In this document: positions 8,538 to 61,735 of the stretch, piece by piece
Layout: each line of letters starts with the position of its first letter
Position numbering within the stretch: the stretch's first letter is position 1
Assembly: GCF_030551255.1 (NCBI RefSeq)
Contig: NZ_CP130630.1
Span: 7,855,501-7,919,500 of the forward strand
Length of the DNA: 64,000 nt
Reading direction: 5' to 3'
DNA from: Streptomyces sp. NL15-2K
Lineage (GTDB): Bacteria; Actinomycetota; Actinomycetes; Streptomycetales; Streptomycetaceae
Notes under the pieces: model-generated
The model's input: the letters and a program-made list of their open reading frames with translations, nothing else
The model's database searches: none
Told to the model about the DNA's origin: nothing
Translations under genes and position numbers: made by a program

Positions 8538-10126
8538 TGAGGGGCATGCGGAGGACGCGGAGGATTCAGCGGATCGCCGTGACGGTGGTGCTCGCGGCCA
8601 CCCTGGCGGGAGGCGGGGTCGCCGTCGCGGACGACGGTACGGCAGCGGGGCCCGGCCTCGGCCGGATCGCCTACGCGGACGGGGCTCTGACCCTGGACCC
8701 GGCGGACGGCGCCCATGCGATCGAGGTCGGCAGCGCGGACGTGGCGGACGCCTCGGCGCCCGGGTGGGACACCACTGGCGTACCCGGGGGCGCTGTGGCC
8801 GGGGACACGCTGAAGTGGTCCCTGGCCGGGCTTGACGGTCCGGGTGACCTGAAGGTGTACGAGGAGGCGGCCGACGGCGCCGAGGACGCGCCGCTGTTCG
8901 ACAGCGCGGACAGCCTGCCGGACGAGCACGAGCTGCCGGTGGGCCAACGGGGCGAGACCCGCTGGGAGTTCAGCGAGAACGGTACATACCAGGTCATCTT
9001 CACTGCCCAGGCCACGGCGGCGGACGGGCGCGAGCTGTCCGTCGGGACCGTGTACACGGTGGTGGTCGGGGACACGGCGGAGGGGGAGAACACGGCAGAG
9101 GGGGAGGGCACGGCTCCGGATGAGCCGGTGGCCGAGGAGAGCCCCGCCGAGAAAACAGCCGAGGGGACGCGGACTCCGACGGCCGCCGGGAAGGCCGTGA
9201 CGGAGGTGGTCGAGGCCGAGCGGCGCACCGCCCGGGTCGCCACCGCGGCTGCCACCGACGTCGTCTCCGACAAGAAGGTCCTCGACGAGGGCCACGTCGA
9301 CTTCGCCGCCCGCGTCGTCGACGACAAGCTGCAGATCCACATCAAGGACGGCACGGTCTCGGGGAAGACCACCTGGCGGGAGCCCTCCTCCGTGGTCCTG
9401 CACGTCAAGCCCGCGGCGAAGAACACCCTCCCGGCGAGCGAGGAGTTCTCGTTCCTCGGAAAGGGCGGCGACCCTGTGTGGCTGCTCGACCAGGTGCAGC
9501 AGGAGGGGCTGCTGTGGCCCGGCTGGTCGACGGACAACATCGAGGCCGGGGCGACCGAGGGGGGTGTGGAGTTCTCACTCACCAAGGCCGACGGTCCAGG
9601 TACCTACGCGCTCTACACGTACGACGCGATGTCGGGCGCGAACGTCCTGTTCAACAGCAAGGACGGGGTGCCGGACGCCTTCGCCGTGCCCGCCGACACG
9701 CACGCGCACGGCGGATGGGCGTTCACCGAGGAAGGGACGTACCGGCTGACCTTCAGGATGAGCGGCACGCTGGCCGACGGCACGAAGGTCTCCGACACGG
9801 AGACGGTGGCGTTCGCGGTCGGCGACACCGACCCCGGCAAGGTGACGCCGGGGGACGGCTCCGGCAAGGGAACCTCCGGGACCGCCGGGTCCTCCGGTTC
9901 CTCTTCCCCGGGGTCCGCGGGGTCCTCGGATTCCTCGGGCACGGCAGGCTCCGCGTCCGACTCCGGCTCCACGGGCGGCAGTTCGGCCGACGACTCCAGC
10001 GACGGCACGATGGCCTCCACCGGCGCCGGCCAGGCCGTACTCCTGGGCTCGGCCGCCGCCGCCCTCACCGCCGTGGGCGCCGCGTCCTTCCTCGCCGCCC
10101 GGCGAAGGAGGACCGCGCGTGGCTGA
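8537..10126 (+). CDS. Surface protein with two anchored-repeat domains and MASTG sorting signal
   Basis: A 529-residue transporter-associated repeat protein (TIGR03773 type). Signal peptide about 1-32, a first divergent repeat (IAYADGALTLDPADG to VYTVVVGD), a Glu/Thr-rich linker, then a typical repeat from VLDEGHVDFAARVVDDK to VAFAVGD. The Gly/Ser-rich tail ends in MASTG, a hydrophobic stretch and RRRRTARG. The ATG overlaps the previous TGA by 1 nt, so translation is coupled to the receptor gene. Its second repeat is very like the repeat in the 5206-6921 protein, pointing to duplication within the operon. Expected location is the cell surface, working with the receptor. Confidence 0.85.
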   Translation: MRGMRRTRRIQRIAVTVVLAATLAGGGVAVADDGTAAGPGLGRIAYADGALTLDPADGAHAIEVGSADVADASAPGWDTTGVPGGAVAGDTLKWSLAGLDGPGDLKVYEEAADGAEDAPLFDSADSLPDEHELPVGQRGETRWEFSENGTYQVIFTAQATAADGRELSVGTVYTVVVGDTAEGENTAEGEGTAPDEPVAEESPAEKTAEGTRTPTAAGKAVTEVVEAERRTARVATAAATDVVSDKKVLDEGHVDFAARVVDDKLQIHIKDGTVSGKTTWREPSSVVLHVKPAAKNTLPASEEFSFLGKGGDPVWLLDQVQQEGLLWPGWSTDNIEAGATEGGVEFSLTKADGPGTYALYTYDAMSGANVLFNSKDGVPDAFAVPADTHAHGGWAFTEEGTYRLTFRMSGTLADGTKVSDTETVAFAVGDTDPGKVTPGDGSGKGTSGTAGSSGSSSPGSAGSSDSSGTAGSASDSGSTGGSSADDSSDGTMASTGAGQAVLLGSAAAALTAVGAASFLAARRRRTARG

Positions 10127-10862
10127 CAGATCGGACCCGCTGCTGCGGGTCACCGGCGCGACCGTCGTCCTCGGCGGCAGGACCGCCCTGGAGCGGGCCG
10201 ACCTGACCGTCGACGCGGGCGAGCTCGTCGGGCTCATCGGACCCAACGGCGCCGGGAAGACGACTCTCCTGCGGGCCGTCCTCGGGTTGGTGCCGCTGGG
10301 CGGGGGAGAGGTGGCCGTCGAGGGACGGACCGGTCGTAAGGCCGGGCAGCGCATCGGATACGTGCCGCAACGGCACGAGTTCGCCTGGGACTTCCCCATC
10401 GACATCGCGGGAGCGGTTCTCACCGGCCGCACCCGGCAGATGGGCTGGCTGCGCCGCCCGCGCGCGGCGGACCGGGCGGCGGTGGACGAGGCGCTGGAGC
10501 TGACCGGGCTCGCCGAACTGCGCCGGCGGCCCGTCGGTGAGCTGTCCGGCGGCCAGCGGCAGCGGGTCCTGGTGGCCCGCGCCCTGGCCGCCGGCCCGCG
10601 CATCCTGCTCCTGGACGAGCCGTTCACCGGAGTCGACGTACCCACCCAGGAGTTGCTGAACGAGCTGTTCGGCCGGCTGGCCGGGGAAGGCAGGGCGCTG
10701 CTGATGACCACCCACGACCTGGCGGCCGCCGCCCGCACCTGCCACCGGGTGGCGCTGATCAACCGCACGGTCGTCGCCGAGGGCGGCCCCGAACTCCTCG
10801 CCGATCCCGACAAGATGCTGCGGGCGTTCGGCCTGGACCGCGCGATCGGAGCCGTAGCGTGA
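10119..10862 (+). CDS. Anchored-repeat-type metal ABC transporter, ATP-binding subunit
   Basis: A 247-residue ABC ATPase of the ZnuC/MntB-like class. It shows Walker A GPNGAGKT near residue 45, Q-loop PQRHEFAWDFP, signature LSGGQRQRVLVARALA, Walker B ILLLDEP and the H-switch TTHDL. GTG at 10119 overlaps the end of the surface-protein gene by 8 nt and the next gene follows by a 4-nt overlap, so ATPase and permease are co-translated. By family and by its ZnuA-like partner it should energise zinc (or manganese) uptake. Confidence 0.9.
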   Translation: MADRSDPLLRVTGATVVLGGRTALERADLTVDAGELVGLIGPNGAGKTTLLRAVLGLVPLGGGEVAVEGRTGRKAGQRIGYVPQRHEFAWDFPIDIAGAVLTGRTRQMGWLRRPRAADRAAVDEALELTGLAELRRRPVGELSGGQRQRVLVARALAAGPRILLLDEPFTGVDVPTQELLNELFGRLAGEGRALLMTTHDLAAAARTCHRVALINRTVVAEGGPELLADPDKMLRAFGLDRAIGAVA

Positions 10863-11722
10863 TCGAGTTCCTCACGGACCCCTGGCACCTGCCCTTCATG
10901 CAGCGGGCGTTCGCCGTCGCCGCGGTCATCGGCCTGGTGTGCGCAGTGGTGGGCGTGTACGTCGTGCTGCGCGGCATGGCGTTCATCGGCGACGCGGTCG
11001 CCCACTCGGCCTTCCCCGGCGTCGCGCTCGCCTACGCCTTCGAGGGCAACCTCCTCCTCGGCGGCGCCGCGGCCGGCATCACGACGGCCGTGTTGATCGC
11101 CTTCGTCTCCCAGAACCGGCGGCTCAAGGAGGACACCGTCATCGGCGTCTTCTTCGCCTTCGCCTTCGGACTCGGCATCGTCCTGGTCTCCACGCGCGAC
11201 AGCTGGACGACCGACCTGTCCTCCTTCCTCTTCGGGCAGGTCCTCGCGGTCAGCGCGTCGGACGTGTGGTCCGTGGCCGCCATCGGTGCCGTACTCGTGC
11301 TCGTCGTGCTCGCGATCGGCAAGGAACTGGTCGCCGTCAGCCTGGACCGGGAGGCGGCACGTGCCGCGGGCCTGCCCGTGTTCCGGCTCGACCTGGCGCT
11401 CTACGTCGTCGTGACCACGACGATCGTGATGTCCCTGGAAGCGGTCGGCAACATCCTCGTCCTCGCCCTGCTCATCACTCCCGCGGCCGCCGCCCGCATG
11501 CTCACCGAACGGCTCTGGGCGATGACCTTGCTGGCGTCGCTCATCGGCTGCGCCGGAAGCGTCGCGGGCCTGTACGTCTCGTACACCTACGACCTGGCCG
11601 CGGGCGGCTCGGTGGTCGTGGTCCTCACCGGCCTGTTCGTCCTCACCTGGTGCCTGGCACCCCGTCACGGACTGCTCGCCAAGCGCATCCGGCGCCCGGA
11701 TCCCGCCCCCGCCGCACCGTGA
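10859..11722 (+). CDS. Anchored-repeat-type metal ABC transporter, permease subunit
   Basis: A 287-residue ABC-3 (ZnuB/MntC family) permease with about eight hydrophobic segments and the typical opening FMQRAFAVAAVIGLVCAVVG followed by GMAFIGDAVAHSAFPGVAL. GTG 10859 overlaps the ATPase stop. It is the last gene of the six-gene operon that starts at 4565. Zinc is the likeliest substrate because of the receptor motifs and the candidate Zur box; manganese cannot be excluded from sequence. Confidence 0.9.
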   Translation: MIEFLTDPWHLPFMQRAFAVAAVIGLVCAVVGVYVVLRGMAFIGDAVAHSAFPGVALAYAFEGNLLLGGAAAGITTAVLIAFVSQNRRLKEDTVIGVFFAFAFGLGIVLVSTRDSWTTDLSSFLFGQVLAVSASDVWSVAAIGAVLVLVVLAIGKELVAVSLDREAARAAGLPVFRLDLALYVVVTTTIVMSLEAVGNILVLALLITPAAAARMLTERLWAMTLLASLIGCAGSVAGLYVSYTYDLAAGGSVVVVLTGLFVLTWCLAPRHGLLAKRIRRPDPAPAAP

Positions 11723-11829
11723 GGGCCCGACCTGTACCGCTGGCTCCTGAGGAAGGCCACAGAGCTATGGGCCCGCACGTCACCTCCCCAACTCCCCTGC
11801 GATACAGGCACATTGAGGACTGTCTGCTC

Positions 11830-11876
11830 ACTTGAATCATCAAGTACCTTGCCCGTGCCGGTCGTTCGAACCGGCA
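11830..11876 (+). promoter_or_regulatory. Two dyads upstream of the LVIVD gene
   Basis: ACTTGAATCATCAAGT (11830-11845) is a perfect 6-4-6 palindrome and TGCCGGT/ACCGGCA (11856-11862/11870-11876) is a second dyad, both in the leader of the gene starting at 11917. They could be an operator and a leader hairpin. No regulator is recognised. Confidence 0.35.
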
Positions 11877-11916
11877 TGCGCCTCGGGGGACCTGACCAGT
11901 CCCGAGTGGAGGAACC

Positions 11917-13791
11917 ATGCACAACGGCCACAGACGGGCCGCCACCAGCCTTGTCACGGCGATCGCCCTCGCTGTCACCGGCCTCACCGGCACCGCGTAC
12001 GGACACGGCGTCCCCGCCGCGGACGACGGAGTCGACAACGGCGTCGCTCATGACCACGACCACCAGCACGGCGGCGAAGAGGGACACCTCCCGGCCACCG
12101 ACAACAACGTCCGCCTCGTCAGCAAGCTGAAGCTGCCGAACGTCACCGAAGGCAAGATCGCCGACGTCGGCGTCTACAAGGGCTACGCCTACCTCGCCTC
12201 CTGGGGCGGCGTGGGCTGCGACAACACCGGCGTCCACGTCGTCGACATCCGCAAGCCCAGCAAGCCGAAGGTCGCCGGCTTCATCCCGGCGCCGGCCGGC
12301 AGCGCTCCCGGCGAGGGCATACAGACCGTCCGCCTGTCCACGCCCGCCTTCACCGGCGACGTCCTCGTCAGCAACAACGAGGTCTGCGGCGAGGGCGGTG
12401 CCGGCGGCATGAACCTCTACGACGTCACCGATCCCGCCGAGCCCAAGGTGCTGGCCGAGGGCGTCGGCGACTTCACGCTGGGCGGCGAGCAGTCCGAGAA
12501 GGCCAACGACATCCACAGCGTCTTCGCCTGGGACGCCGGCGACAAGGCGTACGCCGTGATCGTCGACAACCTGGAAGCCGTCAACACCGACATCATGGAC
12601 ATCACCGACCCGGCGAAGCCGCGACTCGTCGCGGAGTACGACCTGTCGGAGACGTTCCCGCAGATCGTGCAGGCGGCGCCGGAGAACCTCAAGGAGATCT
12701 TCCTCCACGACATGGTGGTCAAGAAGATCCGCGGCCGTCAGGTGCTGCTGGCCTCGTACTGGGACGGCGGGTACATCGCCGTCGACGTGACCGACCCGAA
12801 GAACATCACGTACCTCGGCGACACCGATTTCACCGACCCCGATCCCGAGGCGGCCGAGAGCGGACTCGACGTGGCTCCCGAAGGCAACGCCCACCAGGCC
12901 GAGTTCACCGGCGACAACCGCTACGTCATCGCCGCCGACGAGGACTTCGCCCCGTACCAGGTCACGGCCCGCAACACCGACGACGACACCACCGTCAACG
13001 CCTCGCAGGGCATCCCCCTGGAAGAGGGCGAGACGATCAGCGGCGGTACGACCTATGTCGGCCTCGCCTGCAACGGCGGCCCGGCCGTCCCGGCGGGCGA
13101 CCCCGCCGCCGTGGACATCGCCGTCGTCGAACGCGGCTCCCACGTCCAGGGCGGCGTGTGCACCTACACCGAGAAGGCCGCCAACATCGAGGCCGCGGGC
13201 GGCTACGACGGGATCCTCGTCGTCAACCGCACCGGCACCGACGCCTGCGACAGCCAGGTCGGCATGACGATCGAGGGCACGCTCCCCACCTTCGGTGTCG
13301 CGCCGCGCGGCCAGGGCTTCGCCGTCTTCGACCAGCCCTACAGCAACGACGACTGCCTCGCCGGCACGGGCCCGGCCACCCTGCCGGTGGACATCGGCAC
13401 CAAGGGCGACCGGCTCACGTTCGCCTCCTCCTTCGACGGCTGGGGCTACGCGCACCTGTACCGCAACGAGCGCGGAAAGATGACCGAGCTGGACACCTAC
13501 GCCATCGACGAGGCCCACGACCCCGAGTACGCCTCCGGCTTCGGCGACCTGTCCATCCACGAGGTCGCCACCTCCCAGGTGCGGCCCGACCTCGCGTACT
13601 TCTCCTACTACGCGGGCGGCTTCCGCGTCGCGAAGATCAAGCACGACAAGCTCGTCGAGGTCGGTCGCTTCATCGACGAGGACGGCAGCAACTTCTGGGG
13701 CGTCCAGGCCTTCAACCACTTCGGAAAGGAGTACGTCGCCGCATCCGACCGCGACTACGGGCTCTACATCTTCCAGTACACCGGCCGCTGA
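11917..13791 (+). CDS. Secreted LVIVD-repeat protein with PA-domain insert and His-rich N-terminus
   Basis: A 624-residue exported protein. A signal peptide (about 1-27) is followed by the metal-binding-looking stretch HDHDHQHGGEEGH. The body has LVIVD/beta-propeller repeats, seen as GVHVVDIRKPSKPKV, GMNLYDVTDPAEPKV, NTDIMDITDPAKPRL and GYIAVDVTDPKNITY. Around residues 370-480 there is a protease-associated (PA) domain with paired Cys segments, and the C-terminal part resumes the propeller. The enzymatic role, if any, is unknown; such proteins are often surface binding proteins. It follows the zinc transporter operon and the His-rich start suggests a metal link, which is inference. It ends just before a strong terminator shared with the convergent DUF305 gene. 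Confidence 0.75.
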   Translation: MHNGHRRAATSLVTAIALAVTGLTGTAYGHGVPAADDGVDNGVAHDHDHQHGGEEGHLPATDNNVRLVSKLKLPNVTEGKIADVGVYKGYAYLASWGGVGCDNTGVHVVDIRKPSKPKVAGFIPAPAGSAPGEGIQTVRLSTPAFTGDVLVSNNEVCGEGGAGGMNLYDVTDPAEPKVLAEGVGDFTLGGEQSEKANDIHSVFAWDAGDKAYAVIVDNLEAVNTDIMDITDPAKPRLVAEYDLSETFPQIVQAAPENLKEIFLHDMVVKKIRGRQVLLASYWDGGYIAVDVTDPKNITYLGDTDFTDPDPEAAESGLDVAPEGNAHQAEFTGDNRYVIAADEDFAPYQVTARNTDDDTTVNASQGIPLEEGETISGGTTYVGLACNGGPAVPAGDPAAVDIAVVERGSHVQGGVCTYTEKAANIEAAGGYDGILVVNRTGTDACDSQVGMTIEGTLPTFGVAPRGQGFAVFDQPYSNDDCLAGTGPATLPVDIGTKGDRLTFASSFDGWGYAHLYRNERGKMTELDTYAIDEAHDPEYASGFGDLSIHEVATSQVRPDLAYFSYYAGGFRVAKIKHDKLVEVGRFIDEDGSNFWGVQAFNHFGKEYVAASDRDYGLYIFQYTGR

Positions 13792-47920: not shown

Positions 47921-48180
47921 GCGGCGTCCGCCCCGCTCTGCGTCTGCCGGGGGCGGGCCTGGTGGAGCTGGTCGCGCAGGGCCTGGATCTCCTCGTCGGT
48001 GACGGGCCCGTGTTCGGCTTCGGCGACGGCGATGAGTTCGTTGAGGTTGTCGCGTTCGATCTGGCGGGCGACGGCGGCGGCGACGTAGGCGGACAGCCCG
48101 GAGGGGCCGCTGCGGGCCTTGGCGGCTTCGGCGATGTCGCGGGGCATGGTGATCGAGTACTTGCCGGTAGGGTCACTCAT
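47917..48180 (-). CDS. vapB: Antitoxin of the VapBC-like pair
   Basis: An 87-residue protein starting MSDPTGKYSITMPRDIAEAA, a ribbon-helix-helix-like DNA-binding opening, followed by a long charged helix (VARQIERDNLNELIAVAEAE) that would wrap the toxin. A direct repeat GGTAG/GGATAGGTAG lies directly upstream of the ATG at 48180 and may be the autoregulatory operator. Confidence 0.78.
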   Translation of the reverse strand: MSDPTGKYSITMPRDIAEAAKARSGPSGLSAYVAAAVARQIERDNLNELIAVAEAEHGPVTDEEIQALRDQLHQARPRQTQSGADAA

Positions 48181-48319
48181 GCTACCTATCCTACCTTTAA
48201 TCCTCCCCGTAAGGGTGCCTTGCCGGCTCCCTGTTTCCAGGTCAGGGCAGCGTGGCTTCTGGGACGCCATTGCTCCGATGGGCGTACGCGTTCACCTGGG
48301 TAGAAAGGTGGTGGGCGCC

Positions 48320-49698
48320 ATGAGGAATGCGGCATTCCCGGTGCATGGAGTGCCCAAGAGGAGACGCGCTGGAAGAACCGTGATCGCTGGGCCGCGCGGC
48401 AACGGCCACGTCGCGATCGCAGCGGCAGATGTCCGGGAGCTGGCCGATGTGTTCGGTGCCGAACTGGTCCGTTCCGTCCGGGACTGCGCAGCCCGTGAGC
48501 AGGATCGCGTGGTTACTGGCTGTGGCTCGGCTCGCGGACGCGCGGTCGGCGTCAGCTGGTACGCCTTCGCGCTCGAGTATCTGGACATGCGCTGGCCGAA
48601 GATCGCGGCGAAGACCCGGAGCGAGACCAACGAGGCCCTGTGCGCGATCACCCAGGCGATGCTTCGCGACGTACGGGGCCGCCCGAGCGACGAGCTGCTG
48701 CGCCGCACGCTGCGGGACTGGGCGTTCGTCGTGCCCCGGCCCGAGCCGCGGAGCATGCCGACCGATGTGCGCCTCGCACTGCGCTGGGTGGCGGGCGCCT
48801 CACGCCCGCTGACCGACATGCTGGATCCGGCCGTGATGCGGGCCGTGCTGGAGGTCCTGCGCCTGAAGCAGGACGGCACGGTGGCAGCGGCCGAGACCCA
48901 GCGGCACAAGCGCATGACCCTGGTCAACGCGGTGGGCTACGCCATCGAGCAGCGCCAGCTGCCCGCCGACCCGCTTGCCTCCATCAAGTGGCGCATCGTC
49001 CAGACCGTCAAGCAGGTCGATCCGCGGGTGGTCGCCAACCCTGCCCAAGCCCGCTCCCTGCTCTGTGCCGTCTCCTACGTCGGCAGTTACGAGCGGGCTC
49101 GCGGACGGCGGCTGGTCGGGCTGTTCGGCGGCATGTACTACGCGGGCTGCGGCCCGAGGAAGCGGTCGCGGTGACCCTGCCGGATTGCCTCCTGCCGACT
49201 GAGGGCTGGGGCAGGGTGACCCTGCACATCACTCGGCCCCAGGCGGGCAAGAAGTGGACCGACACCGGACGGCTTCATGACGAGCGTGGTCTGAAAGATC
49301 GCCCGCCGGGCGAAACCCGTCCGGTGCCGCTGCCGCCGGAGCTGGTGGCACTGTGGCGGGAGAGCATCGACACCTTCGGCACCGCCGACGACGGGCGGCT
49401 GTTCTTCAACGAGCGCGGCGGCATTGCCGCCTCCGGCACGTACGACCGTGTCTGGCACGAGGCCCGCGAACTCGCCTTCCTGCCCGACCTGGTGGCATCC
49501 CCGCTCGCGGCCCGCCCCTACGACCTGCGCCACTCAGCTCTGTCCACGTGGCTGAACGCTGGCGTCGACCCCACCGAGGTCGCCGAACGTGCCGGCAACA
49601 GCGTCGAGGTCCTCATGACTCGCTACGCCAAGTGCCTGTACGGGCGGCAGGAGATCGCCAACCAGCGCATCGAGCAACTCCTGCACGAGTACGCGTAG
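48320..49698 (+). pseudogene. Tyrosine-type integrase, frameshifted in the catalytic domain
   Basis: ATG 48320 opens a phage/ICE-type integrase: core-binding region (TRSETNEALCAITQAMLRDV) and start of the catalytic domain (GRRLVGLFGGMYYAG). At about 49145 one base is missing: GGGCTGCGGCCC reads GCGP, where GLRPEEA, holding the first catalytic Arg, is expected. The next frame gives LRPEEAVAVTLPDCLLPTEG, then YDLRHSALSTWLNAGVDPTE (Arg-His box), VAERAGNSVEVLMTRYAKCL (catalytic Tyr) and stops at 49698. One indel thus inactivates it. It is the only integrase in the window and lies within the repeat-bounded segment, the most likely source of the half-tRNA copies. Confidence 0.82.
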
Positions 49699-50891: not shown

Positions 50892-52022
50892 ATGGGTGAT
50901 GTCCGTCGTCGGCGCTTGATCATGCTCGATGTGCTGGCCGCACTCGGATTCGTACTGCTCCCGCAGGTGTCGCTGCTGCGGCCGGCCATGAGCGCCGAGG
51001 TGAGCGGCGGCACCGTATGGCTGCTGTCGCTGAGCACCGCGCTGCCTCTGATCGCCCGGCGGCTGTGGCCCGTGCCGGTCTTCGTGTTCGTCCTGACCGC
51101 CGCTTGCGTGGCGTCGGCCGTCGGTGTCGGACCGCCCCCGTTTTTCGCCGCCGCCTACGCCCTGTACACGGTGGCCACGACGAGGCGGCGGCAACCAAGG
51201 CTGTCCGCAGTTCTCATCGCCGGGCAGTGCGCGGTGGGCGCGGCCCTGCTCACGGTGACGGGAGGGCAGAGCTACCAGGGTGGGACCCAGGCAGTGCAGG
51301 TCGTGTTCGGACTGCTCGTCCTCGGCGCCACTTGGGCGGCGGGATCGGCGGTCAGAGAGCGGCGGGAGAGCATACGGCGTGCCATCGAGCAGGCGGCCGA
51401 GCAGGCGAAGGTCGAGGAACGCCTGCGCATCGCCCGCGACATCCACGACGTCGTCACGCACAGCGTGGGCCTGATCGCAGTCCGGGCCGGGATCGCCAAC
51501 CATGTGGTCGCCAGCCACCCGAAGGAGGCGCGGGAAGCCCTGACGATGATCGAGGACGTGGCCCGCGGTGCGCTGCGCGACATGCGGGCCACCCTCAAGG
51601 TACTGCGCCGGGACCAGGAGGGCGCTCAGGACCTTAGGCCGGTTCTCGGGCTGTCGGACCTTCCCTCCCTGGTCCAGTCGGCGGAGGCGGCGGGCGTGCG
51701 GGTGGACCTGCGGTCTCGCGGCACGGAGGAACCTCCGGACGGTGTCGCGCTGTCCGCGTTCCGGATCGTCCAGGAGGCGCTGACCAACGTCATCAAACAC
51801 GCCGCGCCGACCCGCTGCCGGGTGCACCTCACCGCGGAGCGGGGCACGTTGACGATCGACGTGGCCGACGAGGGCCCCGGGCCCGGGAAACGGCCGAGCG
51901 TGCCCGGCGGCCAGATGGGCCTCGTCGGGATGAAAGAGCGGGTCGCCGCGCACGGCGGCACCCTCAGCGCCGGACCGAGGCCGGGCGGCGGTTTCCGGGT
52001 CCTGGCGACGCCGCCGTACTGA
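50892..52022 (+). CDS. Two-component sensor histidine kinase (HisKA_3)
   Basis: A 376-residue NarL-group kinase. Four to five hydrophobic segments in the first 150 residues, then RIARDIHDVVTHSVGLIAVR with phospho-His185, and the ATPase domain (VQEALTNVIKHA, DEGPGPGK, GLVGMKERVAAHGG). ATG 50892 is used; the frame is open further upstream without good codons. It most likely phosphorylates the LuxR-type regulator at 55658; the two bracket the lasso genes and resemble the regulator pair of MS-271/siamycin-type clusters. Confidence 0.87.
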   Translation: MGDVRRRRLIMLDVLAALGFVLLPQVSLLRPAMSAEVSGGTVWLLSLSTALPLIARRLWPVPVFVFVLTAACVASAVGVGPPPFFAAAYALYTVATTRRRQPRLSAVLIAGQCAVGAALLTVTGGQSYQGGTQAVQVVFGLLVLGATWAAGSAVRERRESIRRAIEQAAEQAKVEERLRIARDIHDVVTHSVGLIAVRAGIANHVVASHPKEAREALTMIEDVARGALRDMRATLKVLRRDQEGAQDLRPVLGLSDLPSLVQSAEAAGVRVDLRSRGTEEPPDGVALSAFRIVQEALTNVIKHAAPTRCRVHLTAERGTLTIDVADEGPGPGKRPSVPGGQMGLVGMKERVAAHGGTLSAGPRPGGGFRVLATPPY

Positions 52023-52143
52023 GCCGGACTCATTCGTACCGGGCGGACTCATCCGCAAGTATGGCTTCGGCCCCGCGAAGGCCGTCCGGTAGTCCCGACC
52101 CGGGACCGATGCTGCCGGCGGGACGCCCGATGAGACTCACCAT

Positions 52144-53043
52144 GTGATTGACGTCCAGAACTTGACCAAGCGGTACGAGCAGAAGACCGTCGTGGACCTC
52201 ACCTTCACGGTGCGGTCCGGGGCCGTCACGGGATTCCTCGGCCCCAACGGAGCCGGGAAGTCCACGACGATGCGGATGATGCTCGGCCTCACCCGCCCGG
52301 ACACCGGATCCGTACGTATCGACGGGCGTGCCTATCACGAACTGCGGTACCCGGTCCGGCATGTTGGTGCCCTGCTGGAGACATCGGCCCCGCATCGCAG
52401 CCTGACCGCCGCCGACCACCTGTTGTGGCTCGCGCAGAGCAACCGGATCGCCCGGCAACGGGTCGGAGAGGTCCTGGAGATGGTCGGCCTGACGGACGCG
52501 GCCCGGCGGCGGATCGGCACGTTCTCCCTGGGGATGGGCCAGCGACTCGGCTTGGCCGCGGCGCTGCTCGGCGACCCGCCCGTCCTGGTGCTCGACGAGC
52601 CGGTCAACGGCCTTGACGCAGAGGGAATCCGGTGGCTGCGCGAACTGCTGCGCGCGATGGCCGCCGAAGGCCGGACCGTCCTCGTCTCCAGCCACCTGAT
52701 GACCGAGATGTCCATGGTCGCGGACCATCTGATCGTCATCAGCCGCGGGCAGCTCCTCGCGGAGACCAGCATGTCGGACTTCATCCAACGCCACGGACGT
52801 ACGTACGTACGCGTGCGGACACCGGAACCGCTGCGGCTCAACAGGGAACTGGAACGGAAGGGAGCCTCGCTGAGGCTCGCATCGGACGGCAGCCTGGAAG
52901 TCGGCGGCATGTCGGCGGCCGAGATCAACCGGTTGGCCGCGGCCAACGGGCTCTCGCTCGAAGAGCTGAGCACCCACACGGGATCCCTTGAGGACACCTT
53001 TCTCGAGCTCATCGGCAAGGGAGGAAGGAACACCCATGTCTGA
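52144..53043 (+). CDS. ABC transporter ATPase (lasso-locus exporter/immunity)
   Basis: A 299-residue ATPase of the BcrA-like DRI class. Walker A FLGPNGAGKSTT, signature FSLGMGQRLGLAAALLG, Walker B VLVLDEPVNGLD, H-switch VSSHLM, and a ~90-residue C-terminal extension. It overlaps the permease gene by 8 nt. Together they probably export, or protect against, the lasso peptide. Confidence 0.88.
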   Translation: MIDVQNLTKRYEQKTVVDLTFTVRSGAVTGFLGPNGAGKSTTMRMMLGLTRPDTGSVRIDGRAYHELRYPVRHVGALLETSAPHRSLTAADHLLWLAQSNRIARQRVGEVLEMVGLTDAARRRIGTFSLGMGQRLGLAAALLGDPPVLVLDEPVNGLDAEGIRWLRELLRAMAAEGRTVLVSSHLMTEMSMVADHLIVISRGQLLAETSMSDFIQRHGRTYVRVRTPEPLRLNRELERKGASLRLASDGSLEVGGMSAAEINRLAAANGLSLEELSTHTGSLEDTFLELIGKGGRNTHV

Positions 53044-53788
53044 GACAGTCGCGGCCATCCGGGCTGAGTTCACCAAGCTGCGAGGCGTCCGCGGCACGTT
53101 CATCGCGCTGTTGCTGTTCGTTCCCGTCAGCGTCCTCATCGCCGCCCTGGGCGGCTGGTCCACGAAGGGCGCGATCGAATCCGACAGCCCTGGGCTTCGC
53201 TCCGACTTCACCCCGGAGCAGGCTGGCCTGGACGGCATCCTCTACGGCCAACTCGCCCTGATCGTGTTCGGAGTGCTCATCGTCTCCAGCGAGTACGCGT
53301 CGGGCATGATGCGGGTCTCGCTGCTCGCCGTGCCCCGGCGAGGCCGGCTCTACGCGGCGAAGATGGCCGTCACCGCTGTCGCCGCCGCGGCCATCGCGAT
53401 CCCCGTCACCGTCGTCAGCTACCTGGTTACCCAGCTCGCCCTGGGATCCTACGGCGCCGCGATCGACGCGAGCGGCGTCCCCGGCGCCCTGGCCGGCGCG
53501 GTGGTCTACCTGATGCTGATGAGCCTGTTCGCGGCGGGTGTGGCCGCGATGGCCCGCAGCGCCATCCTGCCGCTGGCCACTCTGCTCCCGATGGTGCTCG
53601 CCGGAACCCAGATCCTTTCCGTCATCGGAGCGACGAGGGAGGTGGCGCGGTACTTTCCCGACCAGGCCGGCATGCGGATGCTCGACGTCGACTCGAACGA
53701 CGCGCACACCGGATTCGCGGTGCTGCTCGTGTGGACCGTGGCGGCGCTGGCCGCGGGCTACTTCCGGCACAGTCGCTGGGACGCGTGA
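53036..53788 (+). CDS. ABC-2 type permease (lasso-locus exporter/immunity)
   Basis: A 250-residue protein with six hydrophobic segments. AAIRAEFTKLRGVRGTFIAL is the classic start of ABC-2 permeases of the BcrB type. ATG 53036 follows GGAGGAAGG and overlaps the ATPase stop. It ends 115 nt before the lasso precursor gene. Confidence 0.88.
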   Translation: MSETVAAIRAEFTKLRGVRGTFIALLLFVPVSVLIAALGGWSTKGAIESDSPGLRSDFTPEQAGLDGILYGQLALIVFGVLIVSSEYASGMMRVSLLAVPRRGRLYAAKMAVTAVAAAAIAIPVTVVSYLVTQLALGSYGAAIDASGVPGALAGAVVYLMLMSLFAAGVAAMARSAILPLATLLPMVLAGTQILSVIGATREVARYFPDQAGMRMLDVDSNDAHTGFAVLLVWTVAALAAGYFRHSRWDA

Positions 53789-53903
53789 CGGGACTGGCAT
53801 GAGGCATGTGCCCCATGCCTGTGGGACATGTCGCTCCGTAGGTTCCCAGACAGATCAAGGGCCGAACAGGTCGGCCCGAACGATCTGACCACTGGGACGA
53901 ACC

Positions 53904-54032
53904 ATGTCCGCGATCTACGAGCCCCCCGCCCTTCAGGAAGTTGGCGACTTCGACGAGCTCGCCAAGTGCCTCGGCGTCGGAAGCTGCGAGGACTTCGCTG
54001 GCTGCGGTTACGCCGTCGTCTGCTTCTGGTGA
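53904..54032 (+). CDS. Siamycin-family class I lasso peptide precursor
   Basis: A 42-residue peptide too short for routine gene calling. The 21-residue leader MSAIYEPPALQEVGDFDELA-K has the YxxPxLxxxGxF motif bound by lasso recognition (RRE) proteins. The 21-residue core starts CLGVGSCEDF and ends AGCGYAVVCFW: Cys1 for the macrolactam with Asp9, and Cys7, Cys13 and Cys19 which with Cys1 make two disulfides. This is the siamycin/aborycin/MS-271 scaffold. Differences from siamycin I as remembered are Asn8 to Glu and Ile17 to Val. The residue two before the core is Ala, where lasso leaders nearly always have Thr. The biosynthetic genes downstream are broken. Confidence 0.93.
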   Translation: MSAIYEPPALQEVGDFDELAKCLGVGSCEDFAGCGYAVVCFW

Positions 54033-54038
54033 TCACAC

Positions 54039-54070
54039 CGGTGCCGGTGCGCTCGGGCGCACCGGCACCG
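54039..54070 (+). terminator. Attenuator hairpin after the precursor gene
   Basis: CGGTGCCGGTGCG (54039-54051) pairs perfectly with CGCACCGGCACCG (54058-54070) with a 6-nt loop, starting 7 nt after the precursor stop. Such hairpins let RiPP loci make more precursor mRNA than enzyme mRNA. Confidence 0.75.
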
Positions 54071-54089
54071 CCCGGGGAACGAGGCGACA

Positions 54090-54712
54090 TGGAATTCGTA
54101 GTTCTTCCGGACTGCCCGGCCGGTGTCCGACTGGCCGCGGACCTGCGGGCGGCACACCGGATCTATCACGCGTCGGGGCGGCCCTGGATTGTGGGTGACT
54201 GGCCCCAGGACGAGGTCACGGTGGTCGAAGCGGACCCGCGGCGGATGGTGCTGCTGGGACACACCTGGCTGGACGAGACGGCCACGACGGCCGCGCTCGG
54301 CCGGATGCGCTCGCTCCACGACGTGGATACGGCGCGTCCCGGCTGCCAGGGCTCTTTCATCTGACGGCTTCGATGGACAGCAGGACCCGGGTCCAGGGCT
54401 CGGTCGCCGGCGTACGACAGATCTTCACCGCCGTGGTCGACGGGGTCACGGTGGCGGCGAGCGGCATGGAGCCGCTGCTGCGGTTCACCGGCGCAAGCCT
54501 CGACGAGACGGTGCTGGCCGCCCGCCTGCTGGTGCCCGGCGGAGTGCCCTGGCCGCTAGCTTTGAGGCCTGTCCACCGGGGTATCGACCCGCTCGGCACC
54601 GGGCACTGGCTCGAACTGGACGCCGACGGCCGGTCGCGACAGATACGTTGGTGGAAGCTGCCGGAGGCGTCCCTCTCGCTGGCACAGGGCGCAGAGGCGA
54701 ACCCACTGCGGT
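54090..54712 (+). pseudogene. Lasso cyclase (asparagine-synthetase-like) N-terminal remnant
   Basis: ATG 54090 begins MEFVVLPDCPAGVRLAADLR; then HASGRPWIVGDWPQDEVTVV and VLLGHTWLDETATTAALGRM, the glutaminase-like N-terminal half of lasso macrolactam synthetases. Around 54325-54345 the frame slips (RPGCQGSFI then stop) and resumes one base off as RLPGLFHLTASMDSRT, continuing to LDADGRSRQIRWWKLPEASL. At about 54712 cyclase sequence ends and CapA-like sequence begins. The whole ATP-pyrophosphatase domain that forms the isopeptide bond is missing. It cannot be active. Confidence 0.8.
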
Positions 54713-54730
54713 ACAGCACGACCGCTGCAG

Positions 54731-55529
54731 GTGACGCCCGCTCAGATGGACGTGCTCCGGCAGATCGACGGGGCTACGGGCCCGGCGGGCCGAGGCGCGC
54801 ACGCTGCTCGGTTTCGATCCCGCCATGCCCTCGCCCGACCGGCTCACCCTGTTCGCCACGCGCTTCCAGGCCGCGGACACACCAGGCTTCACCACCACCT
54901 GCGACCCGAAGGACCTCGACGAGATCTCCCAGTGGGTGGTCGAGGCCCGGCGCCGTGCGGACCTCGTCATGGTCAGCGTGCACTCCCACGAGCTCGGCCC
55001 GACGCCGGAGACACCCGGCGAATTCCTGCGCGAGTTCGCCCACCGGATGATCGACGAGGGCGCCGACATCGTGGTTGGACACGGCCCGCACCTCCTCCGC
55101 GGCGTGGAGCTCTACCGGCAGAAACCGATCTTCTACAGCCTGAGAAACATCGTCAGCCAGATCGAACGCGCCGACCGGGTCCCCGCCGAGGACTACGCGA
55201 GGGTCGCCGCGGGCGAACAGCTCACACCAGGACGGTACTTCGCCGAACTCGTCGCTCACGGCCGTCGGCTGTTCGCCCCGCACCGCCAGTACTGGCAGTC
55301 GCTCGTGCCGGTGCTCACGTTCGACGACGGCGCGCTCGTTGGCGCCCGCCTCCACCCGATCGAACTGGGTTTCGGCCAGCCGGTTCACCGCCGGGACCGC
55401 CCGCGTTTGGCAGGCCCGGTCGACGCCAAGGACATCCTCACCGACTTCGCCCGGCTTGCGGAGCCGTACGGCGCCACCGTCACGGTCGGGGACAGGGGGG
55501 CGGGTGAGTTGGTGATCGACGGGTCGTGA
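54731..55529 (+). pseudogene. CapA/MslH-like peptide epimerase, C-terminal remnant with frameshift
   Basis: From GTG 54731 the frame reads MTPAQMDVLRQIDGATG, shifts near 54775, and continues RRAEARTLLGFDPAMPSPDR through DLVMVSVHSHELGPTPETPG, IVVGHGPHLLRGVELYRQKP and IFYSLRNIV to a stop at 55529. These are the C-terminal metal-binding motifs of the CapA/PGA_cap metallophosphatase fold, to which the C-terminal Trp epimerase MslH of MS-271 belongs. The N-terminal half is missing, fused by a deletion to the cyclase remnant. An in-frame ATG at 54825 could still give a 234-residue partial protein. Confidence 0.75.
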
Positions 55530-55657
55530 CATCCGCGGGACGCCTCGCCCTGGCTGCTTTCGTCTCAACAGCTCGTGGGCGCAAAGCAGTTGAGAAAACG
55601 GAACTGCTAAAATCGCGGATCCGATGGCCCCGATGAGCAGCGTGCGAGGAATGCGGA

Positions 55658-56332
55658 ATGACTGAGGCGGTCCGGGTGCTGATCGCGGACGATCAGGCGC
55701 TGTTGCGCGGGGGCTTCCGTGTCCTCATTGATTCGACACCCGGAATGGAGGTGATAGGCGAGGTGGGGAACGGCGCCAGGGCAGTGGAACTCGCCCGGGA
55801 ACTCAAACCGGACGTCGTCCTGATGGATCTGCGCATGCCCGTCATGGACGGCATCGCGGCCACGCGGGAGATCTGCTCCGACGAGACGATGGCCGGTGTA
55901 CGGGTACTGGCCCTCACGATGTTCGACATGGACGACTACGTCTACCCGGCCCTTCAGGCGGGCGCGAGCGGATTCATGCTGAAGGACGCCTCGCCGTCCG
56001 ACCTGCTCGCCGGCATTCGCGTCATCGCCACCGGCGAGGGTGTACTGGCACCCACGGTCACGCGCCGCCTCATTGCGAACTTCTCCCGTAGCGACGAAAC
56101 GGCTCGGTCGGCCCCGCGGCTCGTCGGGCTCACCAAGCGGGAACAGGAGGTGCTCGTGCTGATCGCGAACGGATTGTCGAACGCCGAGATCTCCCAGCAA
56201 CTGGTGGTCAGCCTGCCAACCGTGAAGACCCATGTGAGCAGCCTCCTTTCCAAGCTGCATGCCCGCGACCGCGCCCAACTGGTCATCATCGCCTATGAAA
56301 GCGGCCTTGCCGAGCGCGGGATGCCGACCTGA
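55658..56332 (+). CDS. NarL/LuxR-family response regulator
   Basis: A 224-residue regulator. Receiver domain with DDQALLRGGF, phospho-acceptor Asp57 in VLMDLRMP and LKDASPSDLL; LuxR HTH with LTKREQEVLVLIANGLSNAE and VKTHVSSLLSKL. It is probably the partner of the kinase at 50892, with the lasso genes between them, as in siamycin-type clusters. It appears intact although the enzymes are broken, so it may now control the exporter only. Confidence 0.88.
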   Translation: MTEAVRVLIADDQALLRGGFRVLIDSTPGMEVIGEVGNGARAVELARELKPDVVLMDLRMPVMDGIAATREICSDETMAGVRVLALTMFDMDDYVYPALQAGASGFMLKDASPSDLLAGIRVIATGEGVLAPTVTRRLIANFSRSDETARSAPRLVGLTKREQEVLVLIANGLSNAEISQQLVVSLPTVKTHVSSLLSKLHARDRAQLVIIAYESGLAERGMPT

Positions 56333-59899: not shown

Positions 59900-61735
59900 G
59901 TGCAGACGGTCGACGGCCTGTTGCAGCGGGCGTGTGAGAAATTCGCTGACGCGACCGCAACCAGCTCCGCTTCAGAAGCCCTTTCATATACCGAACTCCT
60001 GTCGCGCGCCCGGAAAGTGGCGGACGACCTGCGAGCGCAGGGCATCGGGCCCGGCGACGCCGTCGGCATTCTCGGTCGACGCAGCGCGTCGGTGATCGTG
60101 GCCGTCTTCGGTGTGTGGATTTCTGGGGGGATCGTCATGCTCGTCGATGACGCACTGCCGGATGTGCGTCGGCAGACCATGCTGGACTCCGGTCACGCGC
60201 GGGCGACCGTCGACTGCGCGAACGGCCACCAAATCGCTTTGCGGCCCGGCTCCGGGCCCACGGACGCAGGCGGTCCGGCCGGGATTCTCGACAACGAGGA
60301 CTACGCCTATATCGCCTTCACCTCAGGGTCCACGGGGAAGCCCAAGGCGATCGTCGGAAGCCACACGGGGTTGTCCCGGTTCCTGGAATGGCAGTCCGGC
60401 GAATTCGACATCGGTCCGCAGGATCGATTCGCCCATCTCACCAACCTGTCTTTCGACGTCTGGTTCCGAGACGCCCTGACGCCCCTGATCTCGGGCGCCA
60501 CACTGTGTATTCCGGATGAACGGCACCTCGACGCCACCGGAGTACGGGAGTTCCTGCGCAGCGAGGAGATCACGGGCTTCCACCTGGTCCCCTCGCTCGG
60601 CAAGGTATGGATGTCCGGCCTCACGGAGAGCGATCCGACGGCGAGCGTCCGGTTGTCCTTCTTCGCGGGCGAGCCTCTGGACGGCGCCCTGGTCAGCAGG
60701 TGGCAGGATCTCTTTCCGAACTGCCAGGTGGTCAACCTCTACGGCCCGACCGAGACGACACTGGCCCAGCACTTCCACCGGGTGCCGCACCGGCCGGCCG
60801 CCGGCATCCAGCCGGTGGGCCGCAACCTCCCCCAGTCGCGCAGCCGTGTCCTGGACGAGGACAGGAAGCCCTGCGCCGACGGTGTCGCCGGGGAGATCCA
60901 CATCGTGGCGGAGCACCCCTCGTACGGCTATCTGGTCGACGGCCGGATCGTCTCGCCGTTCGTCGAACTCCACCTCGACGGGGAGCGGGTCCTCGCCTAC
61001 CCGACCGGGGATCTCGGGCGGCGCGGCGCGGACGGCGACCTGGAGATCCTCGGCCGGGCGGACGACCAGATCAAGATCGCGGGCGTCCGGATCGAACTGC
61101 AGGAGGTGCGCTCCGCGATCCAGTCCCACCCCAGCGTCCGCGATGTCTTCGTCTGTGCGCAGGAGGACCGGTTCACCAAGTTCATCGTCGCGGTCGTCGA
61201 GGGGGACGCGACGGCCGAACGGGAACTGCGCGACTACCTGGGCGGGCGTCTGATGAGCGCGATGCTGCCCTCCGCCTACCTCTTTCTCCCCGAACTGCCC
61301 AAGCTCCCCAACGGGAAGATCGACCGTAAGGCGCTGTCCGAGACCGCTCGCGCCCATGTGCAGGCCCGGGCCCGGCACGCGGCCGACGAGGGACCGTCGG
61401 GTCCGAAGGCCCGGTCGGTCGCCGACCGGCTGGAGCGGATCTGGCTCTCCGTGGCCGGTGGCGGAGCCACCTCCCTGGCCGACCGTGAGTCGAACTTCTT
61501 CGACGTGGGAGGGACCTCGCTGACCATCGTCGTCCTCCACTCCGAGATCCAGAGCGAGTTCGGTGTGCGGTTCCCGATGGTCCGCCTCTTCGAGCACGCC
61601 TCCTTCAACGCGCAGCGCAGGTTCCTCGAGTCCATGACGAAGCAGCCGCGCAAGCGCGTACCGGGCACCTCGGCGGCCACGGCGCGCGCCGCACGCAGCC
61701 GCGTCCTGACGGCCAGGCGCGCCCGCCGGACCTGA
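59900..61735 (+). CDS. NRPS loading-type protein: adenylation domain and carrier domain
   Basis: A 611-residue A-PCP protein. Adenylation motifs: A3 FTSGSTGKPKA at 140-150, A4 region LSFDVWFRDAL, A5 NLYGPTETT, A7 YPTGDLGRRG, A8 GRADDQIKIAGVRIELQEV, A10 PNGKIDRKAL. A carrier domain follows with FFDVGGTSL, whose Ser540 takes the phosphopantetheine arm. There is no condensation domain, so it would activate a starter amino acid and pass it to the KS of the next protein. The amino acid cannot be predicted with confidence. GTG 59900 follows GGAGAG. Confidence 0.9.
   Translation: MQTVDGLLQRACEKFADATATSSASEALSYTELLSRARKVADDLRAQGIGPGDAVGILGRRSASVIVAVFGVWISGGIVMLVDDALPDVRRQTMLDSGHARATVDCANGHQIALRPGSGPTDAGGPAGILDNEDYAYIAFTSGSTGKPKAIVGSHTGLSRFLEWQSGEFDIGPQDRFAHLTNLSFDVWFRDALTPLISGATLCIPDERHLDATGVREFLRSEEITGFHLVPSLGKVWMSGLTESDPTASVRLSFFAGEPLDGALVSRWQDLFPNCQVVNLYGPTETTLAQHFHRVPHRPAAGIQPVGRNLPQSRSRVLDEDRKPCADGVAGEIHIVAEHPSYGYLVDGRIVSPFVELHLDGERVLAYPTGDLGRRGADGDLEILGRADDQIKIAGVRIELQEVRSAIQSHPSVRDVFVCAQEDRFTKFIVAVVEGDATAERELRDYLGGRLMSAMLPSAYLFLPELPKLPNGKIDRKALSETARAHVQARARHAADEGPSGPKARSVADRLERIWLSVAGGGATSLADRESNFFDVGGTSLTIVVLHSEIQSEFGVRFPMVRLFEHASFNAQRRFLESMTKQPRKRVPGTSAATARAARSRVLTARRARRT

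What the first reader, a model, noticed from the sequence alone, without database searches (positions are those of the whole stretch)
53904..55529. A gutted siamycin-family lasso peptide locus with an intact precursor
The 42-residue precursor has a canonical lasso leader and a four-cysteine siamycin-type core. Kinase, response regulator, ABC exporter and attenuator are intact, but the cyclase keeps only its N-terminal half, the leader-recognition and protease genes are absent, and a CapA-type epimerase remnant is fused to the cyclase scrap. It is a snapshot of decay: one deletion took the ATP-dependent cyclase half, RRE, protease and the front of the epimerase. The core is a new natural variant that could be made by enzymes from a related complete cluster.
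Basis: partly seen in the sequence, partly recalled or inferred. Interest (0 to 1): 0.82.

Follow-up and report, generated by a model that had tools for sequence, protein, structure and literature searches.

The report
Gutted siamycin cluster keeps resistance module
A soil Streptomyces has lost the genes that make a siamycin-type antibiotic but kept the sensor, regulator and pump beside them, and relatives have done the same, which suggests that non-producers hold on to the protection.

Summary
The locus is real: a siamycin-type lasso cluster gutted by one 5,462-bp deletion (window 54698/54699), mapped against a complete cluster 87-88% identical (MAG Bin2.31). Lost are two thirds of the cyclase, B1, B2, transporter D3/D4, oxidoreductases E/F and the front of epimerase H; regulator R1 is missing too. 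Three small indels break the remnants further. The precursor differs from the complete cluster's only by Thr(-2) to Ala, at a leader residue important for processing, so its core is not unique here. The locus was probably reported in 2020 as 'siamycin N2' of strain NL15-2K.
New is the pattern. Of 392 Streptomyces genomes 14 carry the siamycin-type D2 permease of the kinase-D1-D2-regulator module; 7 of these lack full H and C. None has a siamycin-type cyclase without the module. Six of 13 gutted loci hold different biosynthetic scraps; the tree needs 8 changes of state, 5 forced by well-supported branches. R1 is gone in 12 of 12 gutted loci with flank (one keeps a 45-bp scrap) and present in 13 of 13 complete ones. 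The module evolves under constraint. Most likely it is a retained siamycin-sensing self-protection module; resistance is untested.

The parts
50892..52022 (+). sensor histidine kinase (MslG/HumG/AboG type), intact
   Evidence: HisKA_3 + HATPase_c + DUF7134; 83% identical to L048 kinase, 96% to S. europaeiscabiei; start chosen by comparison with relatives
52144..53043 (+). ABC transporter ATPase D1, intact; proposed self-protection pump
   Evidence: ABC_tran; best NCBIfam TIGR03740 lantibiotic protection ABC ATPase, 199.9 bits, below its cut-off 309.75; 89% to L048
53036..53788 (+). ABC transporter permease D2, intact
   Evidence: ABC2_membrane_4; 84% to L048; siamycin-type D2 in 14 of 392 genus genomes
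53803..53819 (.). inverted repeat GGCATG-N5-CATGCC upstream of the precursor gene, possible operator
   Evidence: read in the sequence; same in L038; binding not tested
53904..54032 (+). precursor A, 42 aa; core CLGVGSCEDFAGCGYAVVCFW; leader Thr(-2) replaced by Ala
   Evidence: NF033521; one amino-acid difference from L038/L048 A
54040..54069 (+). hairpin between A and C (attenuator-like)
54089..54698 (+). cyclase C remnant: first third, frame ended at 54362 by a 1-bp deletion
   Evidence: aligned to L038 2413-3023
54698..54699 (.). deletion junction; 5,462 bp absent relative to the complete cluster
   Evidence: blastn: window 51699-54698 = L038 1-3023, window 54699-56332 = L038 8486-10088; no clear microhomology
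54699..55529 (+). epimerase H remnant (last ~278 of 440 codons), with 1-bp insertion and 8-bp deletion near its start
   Evidence: NF038314 443 bits, profile 207-438/439; alignment
55658..56332 (+). response regulator R2 (LuxR/NarL type), intact
   Evidence: Response_reg + GerE; 91% to L048

Best explanation
The locus is a dead siamycin-type lasso cluster. One illegitimate deletion of 5,462 bp removed most of the cyclase, B1, B2, exporter D3/D4, disulfide enzymes E/F and the front of H; regulator R1 is also gone. The precursor is at most a translated, unprocessable leftover, because its processing enzymes are missing and its leader has lost Thr(-2). What remains functional is kinase G, ABC pump D1/D2 and response regulator R2. 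Inferred mechanism: G senses siamycin-class peptide (or its effect on lipid II), R2 induces D1/D2, and D1/D2 removes the peptide from the membrane. The strain would then be a non-producer that keeps protection against neighbours' siamycins. The split also predicts that in complete clusters D1/D2 is the immunity pump and D3/D4 the exporter. Shown: deletion, lesions, recurrence, conservation of the module. Inferred: sensing, resistance, pump roles.
For: Deletion and lesions. Recurrence: 14 of 392 genus genomes have a siamycin-type D2 (399-487 bits, next 203); 7 have full H and the same 7 have a siamycin-type C (>=969 bits, next 570); the other 7, this genome included, keep the module, whole or damaged, without them. 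In the pattern-based scan of species genomes 14 of 22 loci are complete and 8 gutted. Physical biosynthetic scraps with different ends in 6 of 13 distinct gutted loci: window, L042, L047, L054, L062, L064. Tree of 27 loci: 8 changes of state at least, 5 forced by starred branches. R1 in 13 of 13 complete loci with left flank held, 0 of 12 gutted, and a 45-bp scrap of the R1 end in L047, so loss happened on both sides of the kept module. dN/dS medians, complete-complete vs gutted-complete (7 of 13 gutted loci used, pairs with dS under 0.7): kinase 0.350/0.365, D1 0.325/0.310, D2 0.375/0.364, R2 0.167/0.164; sister gutted pair window-L062 0.31, 0.14, 0.32 (155 codons), 0.25. No siamycin-type B2 or C elsewhere in the genome.
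Against: The module is broken in 3 of 13 gutted loci: D2 frameshifted in L062, kinase and D1 truncated in L097, kinase and D2 cut and D1 absent in L061, so it too can decay. dN/dS of gutted-complete pairs includes time before the loss, and the sister pair L099-L061 has kinase dN/dS 0.72 over the 202 codons left. L060, L065 and L100 show no trace of biosynthetic genes and may never have had them; L045, L061, L097 and L099 show none beyond the stretch before R2. D1 falls below the cut-off of the lantibiotic-protection model. No resistance data exist; PMC7168211 says D1-D4 should all export. Precursor A differs from L048's by 1 nonsynonymous and 8 synonymous codons, and the H remnant has dN/dS 0.225, both like living genes: the loss may simply be recent, so the module of this very strain has had little time to decay.
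Confidence: 0.65

Rival explanations
1. Plain decay: a recent deletion killed the cluster and the remaining module is a passive remnant on its way out.
For: Three small indels in the remnants; Thr(-2)Ala; module broken in 3 of 13 gutted loci; closest relative S. europaeiscabiei (L062) has lost the A start codon and has a frameshifted D2.
Against: Module genes found whole and in one frame in 10 of 13 gutted loci, dN/dS as in complete loci, and no genome of 392 has a siamycin-type C without the module, so loss is one-sided.
Confidence: 0.22
2. The kinase-D1-D2-R2 module is an older, general cell-envelope-stress operon that captured a lasso cluster; loci without core are partly the ancestral state, and its ligand is not specifically siamycin.
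For: L060, L065, L100 carry the module without any trace of core genes; related D2 permeases (~180-200 bits) are common in the genus (254 of 392 genomes have a match at E<=1e-50). State changes on an unrooted tree do not tell gain from loss.
Against: Scraps of A, C, D3 or H in 6 gutted loci show loss there, and a scrap of R1 in one; the 14 siamycin-type D2 stand 196 bits above the rest.
Confidence: 0.3
3. The precursor is matured in trans by another RiPP enzyme set in the genome.
For: A divergent B2-like/asparagine-synthetase-like pair exists at G000:C1:3997541-3999425 (L110).
Against: That pair has its own quite different precursors, scores below the lasso B2 cut-off (20.9 vs 33), no siamycin-type B2 or C elsewhere, and Thr(-2) is Ala.
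Confidence: 0.03
4. Assembly collapse hides a complete gene set.
For: None found.
Confidence: 0.01

Closest known systems
'siamycin N2' of Streptomyces sp. NL15-2K (PMC7168211, section 2.4)
   Same: precursor of siamycin type, missing genes, truncated C; contig sizes of the window's genome (12,347,483; 38,342; 11,596) match NL15-2K (12,368,159-bp chromosome, 38 kb terminal repeat, 11,584-bp plasmid; PMC11812412)
   Different: identity is inferred, not shown letter for letter; the text read gives no deletion map, no Thr(-2)Ala, no remark on the kept module or its recurrence (figures not seen)
MS-271, aborycin, specialicin, humidimycin clusters
   Same: gene order G-D1-D2-A-C-B1-B2-D3-D4-E-F-H-R2 with divergent R1, as in complete loci here and, down to D4, in the part of Table 1 of PMC6409603 seen
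   Different: those are complete; here C to H is deleted and R1 absent
complete cluster of MAG Streptomyces sp. Bin2.31 (L048, JABFVM010000430.1)
   Same: identical 21-residue core, 87-88% DNA identity
   Different: complete, with Thr(-2)
orphan immunity loci of bacteriocins and lantibiotics (recalled)
   Same: immunity/sensing genes outlive the biosynthetic genes
   Different: no such case for lasso peptides showed in the listings of my searches; function not tested

Membership tests
class I (siamycin-type) lasso peptide cluster, functional | precursor with YxxPxL leader motif | tested here: met
   NF033521 25.6 bits over cut-off 19
class I (siamycin-type) lasso peptide cluster, functional | Thr at leader position -2 | tested here: not met
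   Ala here; Thr in all 13 other distinct full siamycin-type precursors among the loci scanned; the dead A remnant of L062 has Ile
class I (siamycin-type) lasso peptide cluster, functional | core with Cys1, Cys7, Asp9, Cys13, Cys19 | tested here: met
class I (siamycin-type) lasso peptide cluster, functional | cyclase C with ATP-dependent asparagine-synthetase domain | tested here: not met
   first third only, frame broken; none elsewhere of siamycin type
class I (siamycin-type) lasso peptide cluster, functional | B1 and B2 | tested here: not met
   absent from locus; no siamycin-type B2 in genome, best E 0.03; B1 searched only at the locus
class I (siamycin-type) lasso peptide cluster, functional | MslH epimerase | tested here: not met
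   C-terminal remnant, 443 bits against cut-off 700
two-component/ABC self-protection module | kinase, regulator, ATPase and permease adjacent and intact | tested here: met
   R2 lies 1.9 kb past D2, behind the remnants
two-component/ABC self-protection module | membership of the lantibiotic-protection ATPase family | tested here: not met
   TIGR03740 is the best hit but 199.9 bits is below its cut-off 309.75
two-component/ABC self-protection module | confers resistance to siamycin-class peptide | not testable with these tools
   needs MIC assay

The most novel reading that the evidence does not exclude
Siamycin-type clusters are repeatedly stripped, by separate loss of R1 and of the A-to-H core, down to a four-gene sense-and-protect cassette (G-D1-D2-R2) that is selected in non-producers; this identifies D1/D2 as the siamycin immunity pump and makes such cassettes a marker of siamycin exposure in soil.
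Probability: 0.5. Interest if true: 0.65.

Novelty: new member of a known kind. Interest (0 to 1): 0.5.

Why it matters
Siamycin I binds lipid II (PMC7168211, passage). How producers protect themselves is stated only presumptively in the passages I read. Recurrent gutting acts as a natural dissection: it separates the genes needed to make the peptide (R1, A, C, B1, B2, D3, D4, E, F, H) from those worth keeping without it (G, D1, D2, R2). That gives a direct, cheap test of which pump is immunity and which is export, and of whether soil non-producers carry ready-made protection against a lipid II binder.

Tried and rejected
Trans-acting enzymes: PF13471 in the own genome gave two sub-cut-off hits. 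One (L110) lies in a divergent RiPP-like locus with its own precursors and was rejected as a maturation source. The open frame at the other (L111) reads like an acetyltransferase (my reading, no family search). The only other C hit (C1:1475075, 26%) is an ordinary asparagine synthase/amidotransferase.

The plasmid search with the locus gave 236 records, 20 seen; the best cover about 20% of the query, by kinase, regulator or transporter genes where annotated.

dN/dS of the C remnant was not used: its best tblastn stretch ran past the frameshift. In that table most ABC2 rows with a gutted locus compare D1 with D3 and were ignored.

The tree label is not clustered beyond chance (126 and 143 of 500 shuffles as low), as expected for scattered loss, but the tree cannot show direction. 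The kinase was missing from three complete rows (L046, L040, L037) and D1 from L061. Loci left out of the tree as duplicates or near copies: L034, L035, L036, L038, L039, L043, L057, L058, L098, L101.

Ascertainment: loci came in through D2, so D2 retention is by construction; the searches with H and C were the reverse check.

R1: L046 and L045 left out because their contigs end too close to the kinase; L037 and L040 because no left flank was fetched. Five of the 13 complete loci supplied the R1 queries. In most gutted loci the R1 query also met R2 at 25-37% identity; in L042 it met nothing, for no reason that I know; intact R1 genes of complete loci were found at 57% or more.

The paper search for the core sequence found nothing, but figures are not searchable, and siamycin N2 is drawn in one.

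Full report
What is there. The precursor gene lies at 53904-54032 and encodes MSAIYEPPALQEVGDFDELAK|CLGVGSCEDFAGCGYAVVCFW. Upstream on the same strand are a histidine kinase (50892-52022), an ABC ATPase (52144-53043) and an ABC permease (53036-53788). Downstream are a cyclase remnant, an epimerase remnant and a response regulator (55658-56332). In the gene names of the abo/hum papers these are G, D1, D2, A, (C), (H), R2 (PMC6409603 and PMC7168211; passages read).

Deletion. The closest complete cluster is in a Streptomyces MAG (L038/L048; G001, 79% complete). The blastn match falls in two blocks: window 51699-54698 to L038 1-3023 (88%) and window 54699-56332 to L038 8486-10088 (87%). So 5,462 bp are missing at one joint. 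The piece held the last two thirds of C, B1, B2, D3, D4, E, F and the first 485 bp of H. Further lesions: a 1-bp deletion in the C remnant that ends its frame at 54362, and a 1-bp insertion and an 8-bp deletion near the start of the H remnant.

Precursor. Against the complete cluster's precursor there is one amino-acid difference, Thr(-2) to Ala, and 8 synonymous codons. All 13 other distinct full siamycin-type precursors in the loci scanned have Thr there. Passages of PMC10368454 call that Thr critical for processing, although Ile, Val and putative Ala at -2 are reported elsewhere. The core with Glu8 is identical in the complete MAG cluster, so it is a natural product candidate there, predicted at m/z 2163.843 [M+H]+ (the same formula gives 2177.8588 for humidimycin, as published).

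Prior art. Section 2.4 of PMC7168211 (read) names 'siamycin N2' in Streptomyces sp. NL15-2K and says the pathway lacks the genes needed and has a truncated C. The window's genome has contigs of 12,347,483, 38,342 and 11,596 bp. NL15-2K is described as a 12,368,159-bp chromosome with 38 kb terminal repeats and an 11,584-bp plasmid (PMC11812412, first part read). I infer that this is the same strain; I could not compare letters.

No enzymes in trans. In the own genome the siamycin-type B2 query gave nothing better than E 0.03. The C query found only the local remnants and an ordinary asparagine synthase. A divergent B2-like plus asparagine-synthetase-like pair exists at C1:3997541-3999425 with its own precursors. 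B1 was not sought genome-wide.

The pattern. I searched 392 genus genomes three times. D2 of siamycin type: 14 of 392, separated by 196 bits from the next. Full H: 7 of 392. Siamycin-type C: 7 of 392, the same seven; the window's remnant scored 226 bits. So half of the genomes with a siamycin-type D2 have no full biosynthetic set, and none of the siamycin-type sets lacks the module. A scan of 84,980 species genomes with two peptide patterns from D2 gave 22 loci, 14 complete and 8 gutted. Merged without duplicates, 13 gutted loci are in hand, the window included.

Loss, not absence. Six of the 13 keep physical biosynthetic scraps with different ends: window (A, C, H), L062 S. europaeiscabiei (A, H), L064 (start of A), L042 (H), L047 S. 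hirsutus (D3, H), L054 (end of H). L062 shares the window's chromosomal site, and its deletion runs between two copies of an 8-bp repeat that the window still shows (53991-53998 and 55443-55450); it may be an extension of the window's deletion or a separate event. A tree of the module from 27 loci needs at least 8 changes of state, 5 of them forced by well-supported branches. L060, L065 and L100 have no trace and may never have had the core.

Two-sided loss. R1, transcribed away from the kinase, is present in 13 of 13 complete loci whose left flank is held and in 0 of 12 gutted ones. In S. hirsutus (L047) a 45-bp piece of the R1 end, 89% identical to L048, is left upstream of the kinase (E 2e-10), while D3 and H scraps lie on the other side of G-D1-D2. 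One contiguous deletion cannot remove R1 and the core and leave G-D1-D2 between them. This is the best single argument that the module was kept because it is useful.

Constraint. dN/dS of G, D1, D2 and R2 in gutted-complete pairs is close to that of complete-complete pairs (7 of 13 gutted and 13 of 14 complete loci, pairs with dS under 0.7). The four genes are found whole and in one frame in 10 of 13 gutted loci; the exceptions are L061, L062 and L097. Against: the H remnant of the window is also still conserved (dN/dS 0.225), so its loss is recent, and the kinase piece of L061 is relaxed (0.72 against L099). A kinase promoter-like stretch (TTGGAC, spacer, TACGTT or TAGGTT just before the start codon) is exact in its first hexamer in 12 of 18 loci aligned, gutted and complete alike (my reading).

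Mechanism, with status. Shown by sequence: deletion, lesions, recurrence, conservation. Inferred: G and R2 sense siamycin-class peptide and induce D1/D2, which protects the cell; D3/D4, whole in no gutted locus, is the exporter. D1's best family match is the lantibiotic-protection ATPase model, but below cut-off. PMC7168211 states that D1-D4 should export and that MslG and MslR2 raise and MslR1 lowers MS-271 yield (passages), which fits R1 being a production-only regulator.

Verdict. The locus itself is a dead, probably already noticed siamycin cluster. The recurrent reduction to a four-gene cassette is the part worth testing; four literature searches for it (top rows of the listings only, open-licence papers only) showed no description.

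Noticed in passing
L110 (G000:C1:3990000-4006000), 7062-13304: A second, divergent lasso-like locus: two tandem small precursors with Cys pattern C-x6-C-x5-CC-x4-C-x4-C (knottin-like, recalled pattern) and leader LQQH(M/L)(F/Y)xEPT, then a B2-like protein (20.9 bits, below cut-off 33), an SGGLSS asparagine-synthetase-like protein without family hit, a MauE-like protein (below cut-off) with a CPAC motif and an S9 peptidase. Six more precursors were found; the synthetase relative occurs in 1 of 99 other genomes searched.
   Followed up: partly
L044 (G000:C1:8729002-8730300): Full-length CapA-family paralogue of MslH (213 bits, below cut-off 700) with no siamycin-type gene around it in 17 kb.
   Followed up: partly
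L041 (G177:C3:193796-211098): Divergent MslH relative (494 bits) without the siamycin module in 17 kb; may belong to another epimerised RiPP.
   Followed up: no
window 48119-49698: Tyrosine-recombinase-like remnant apparently split by frameshifts, near the left edge of the lasso locus (read from ORFs, no family search).
   Followed up: no
window 53803-53819: Inverted repeat GGCATG-N5-CATGCC between D2 and the precursor, kept in the complete relative; possible regulator site.
   Followed up: no
window 59900-61735: 611-aa ORF that reads like an adenylation plus carrier protein (NRPS-like), only.
   Followed up: no
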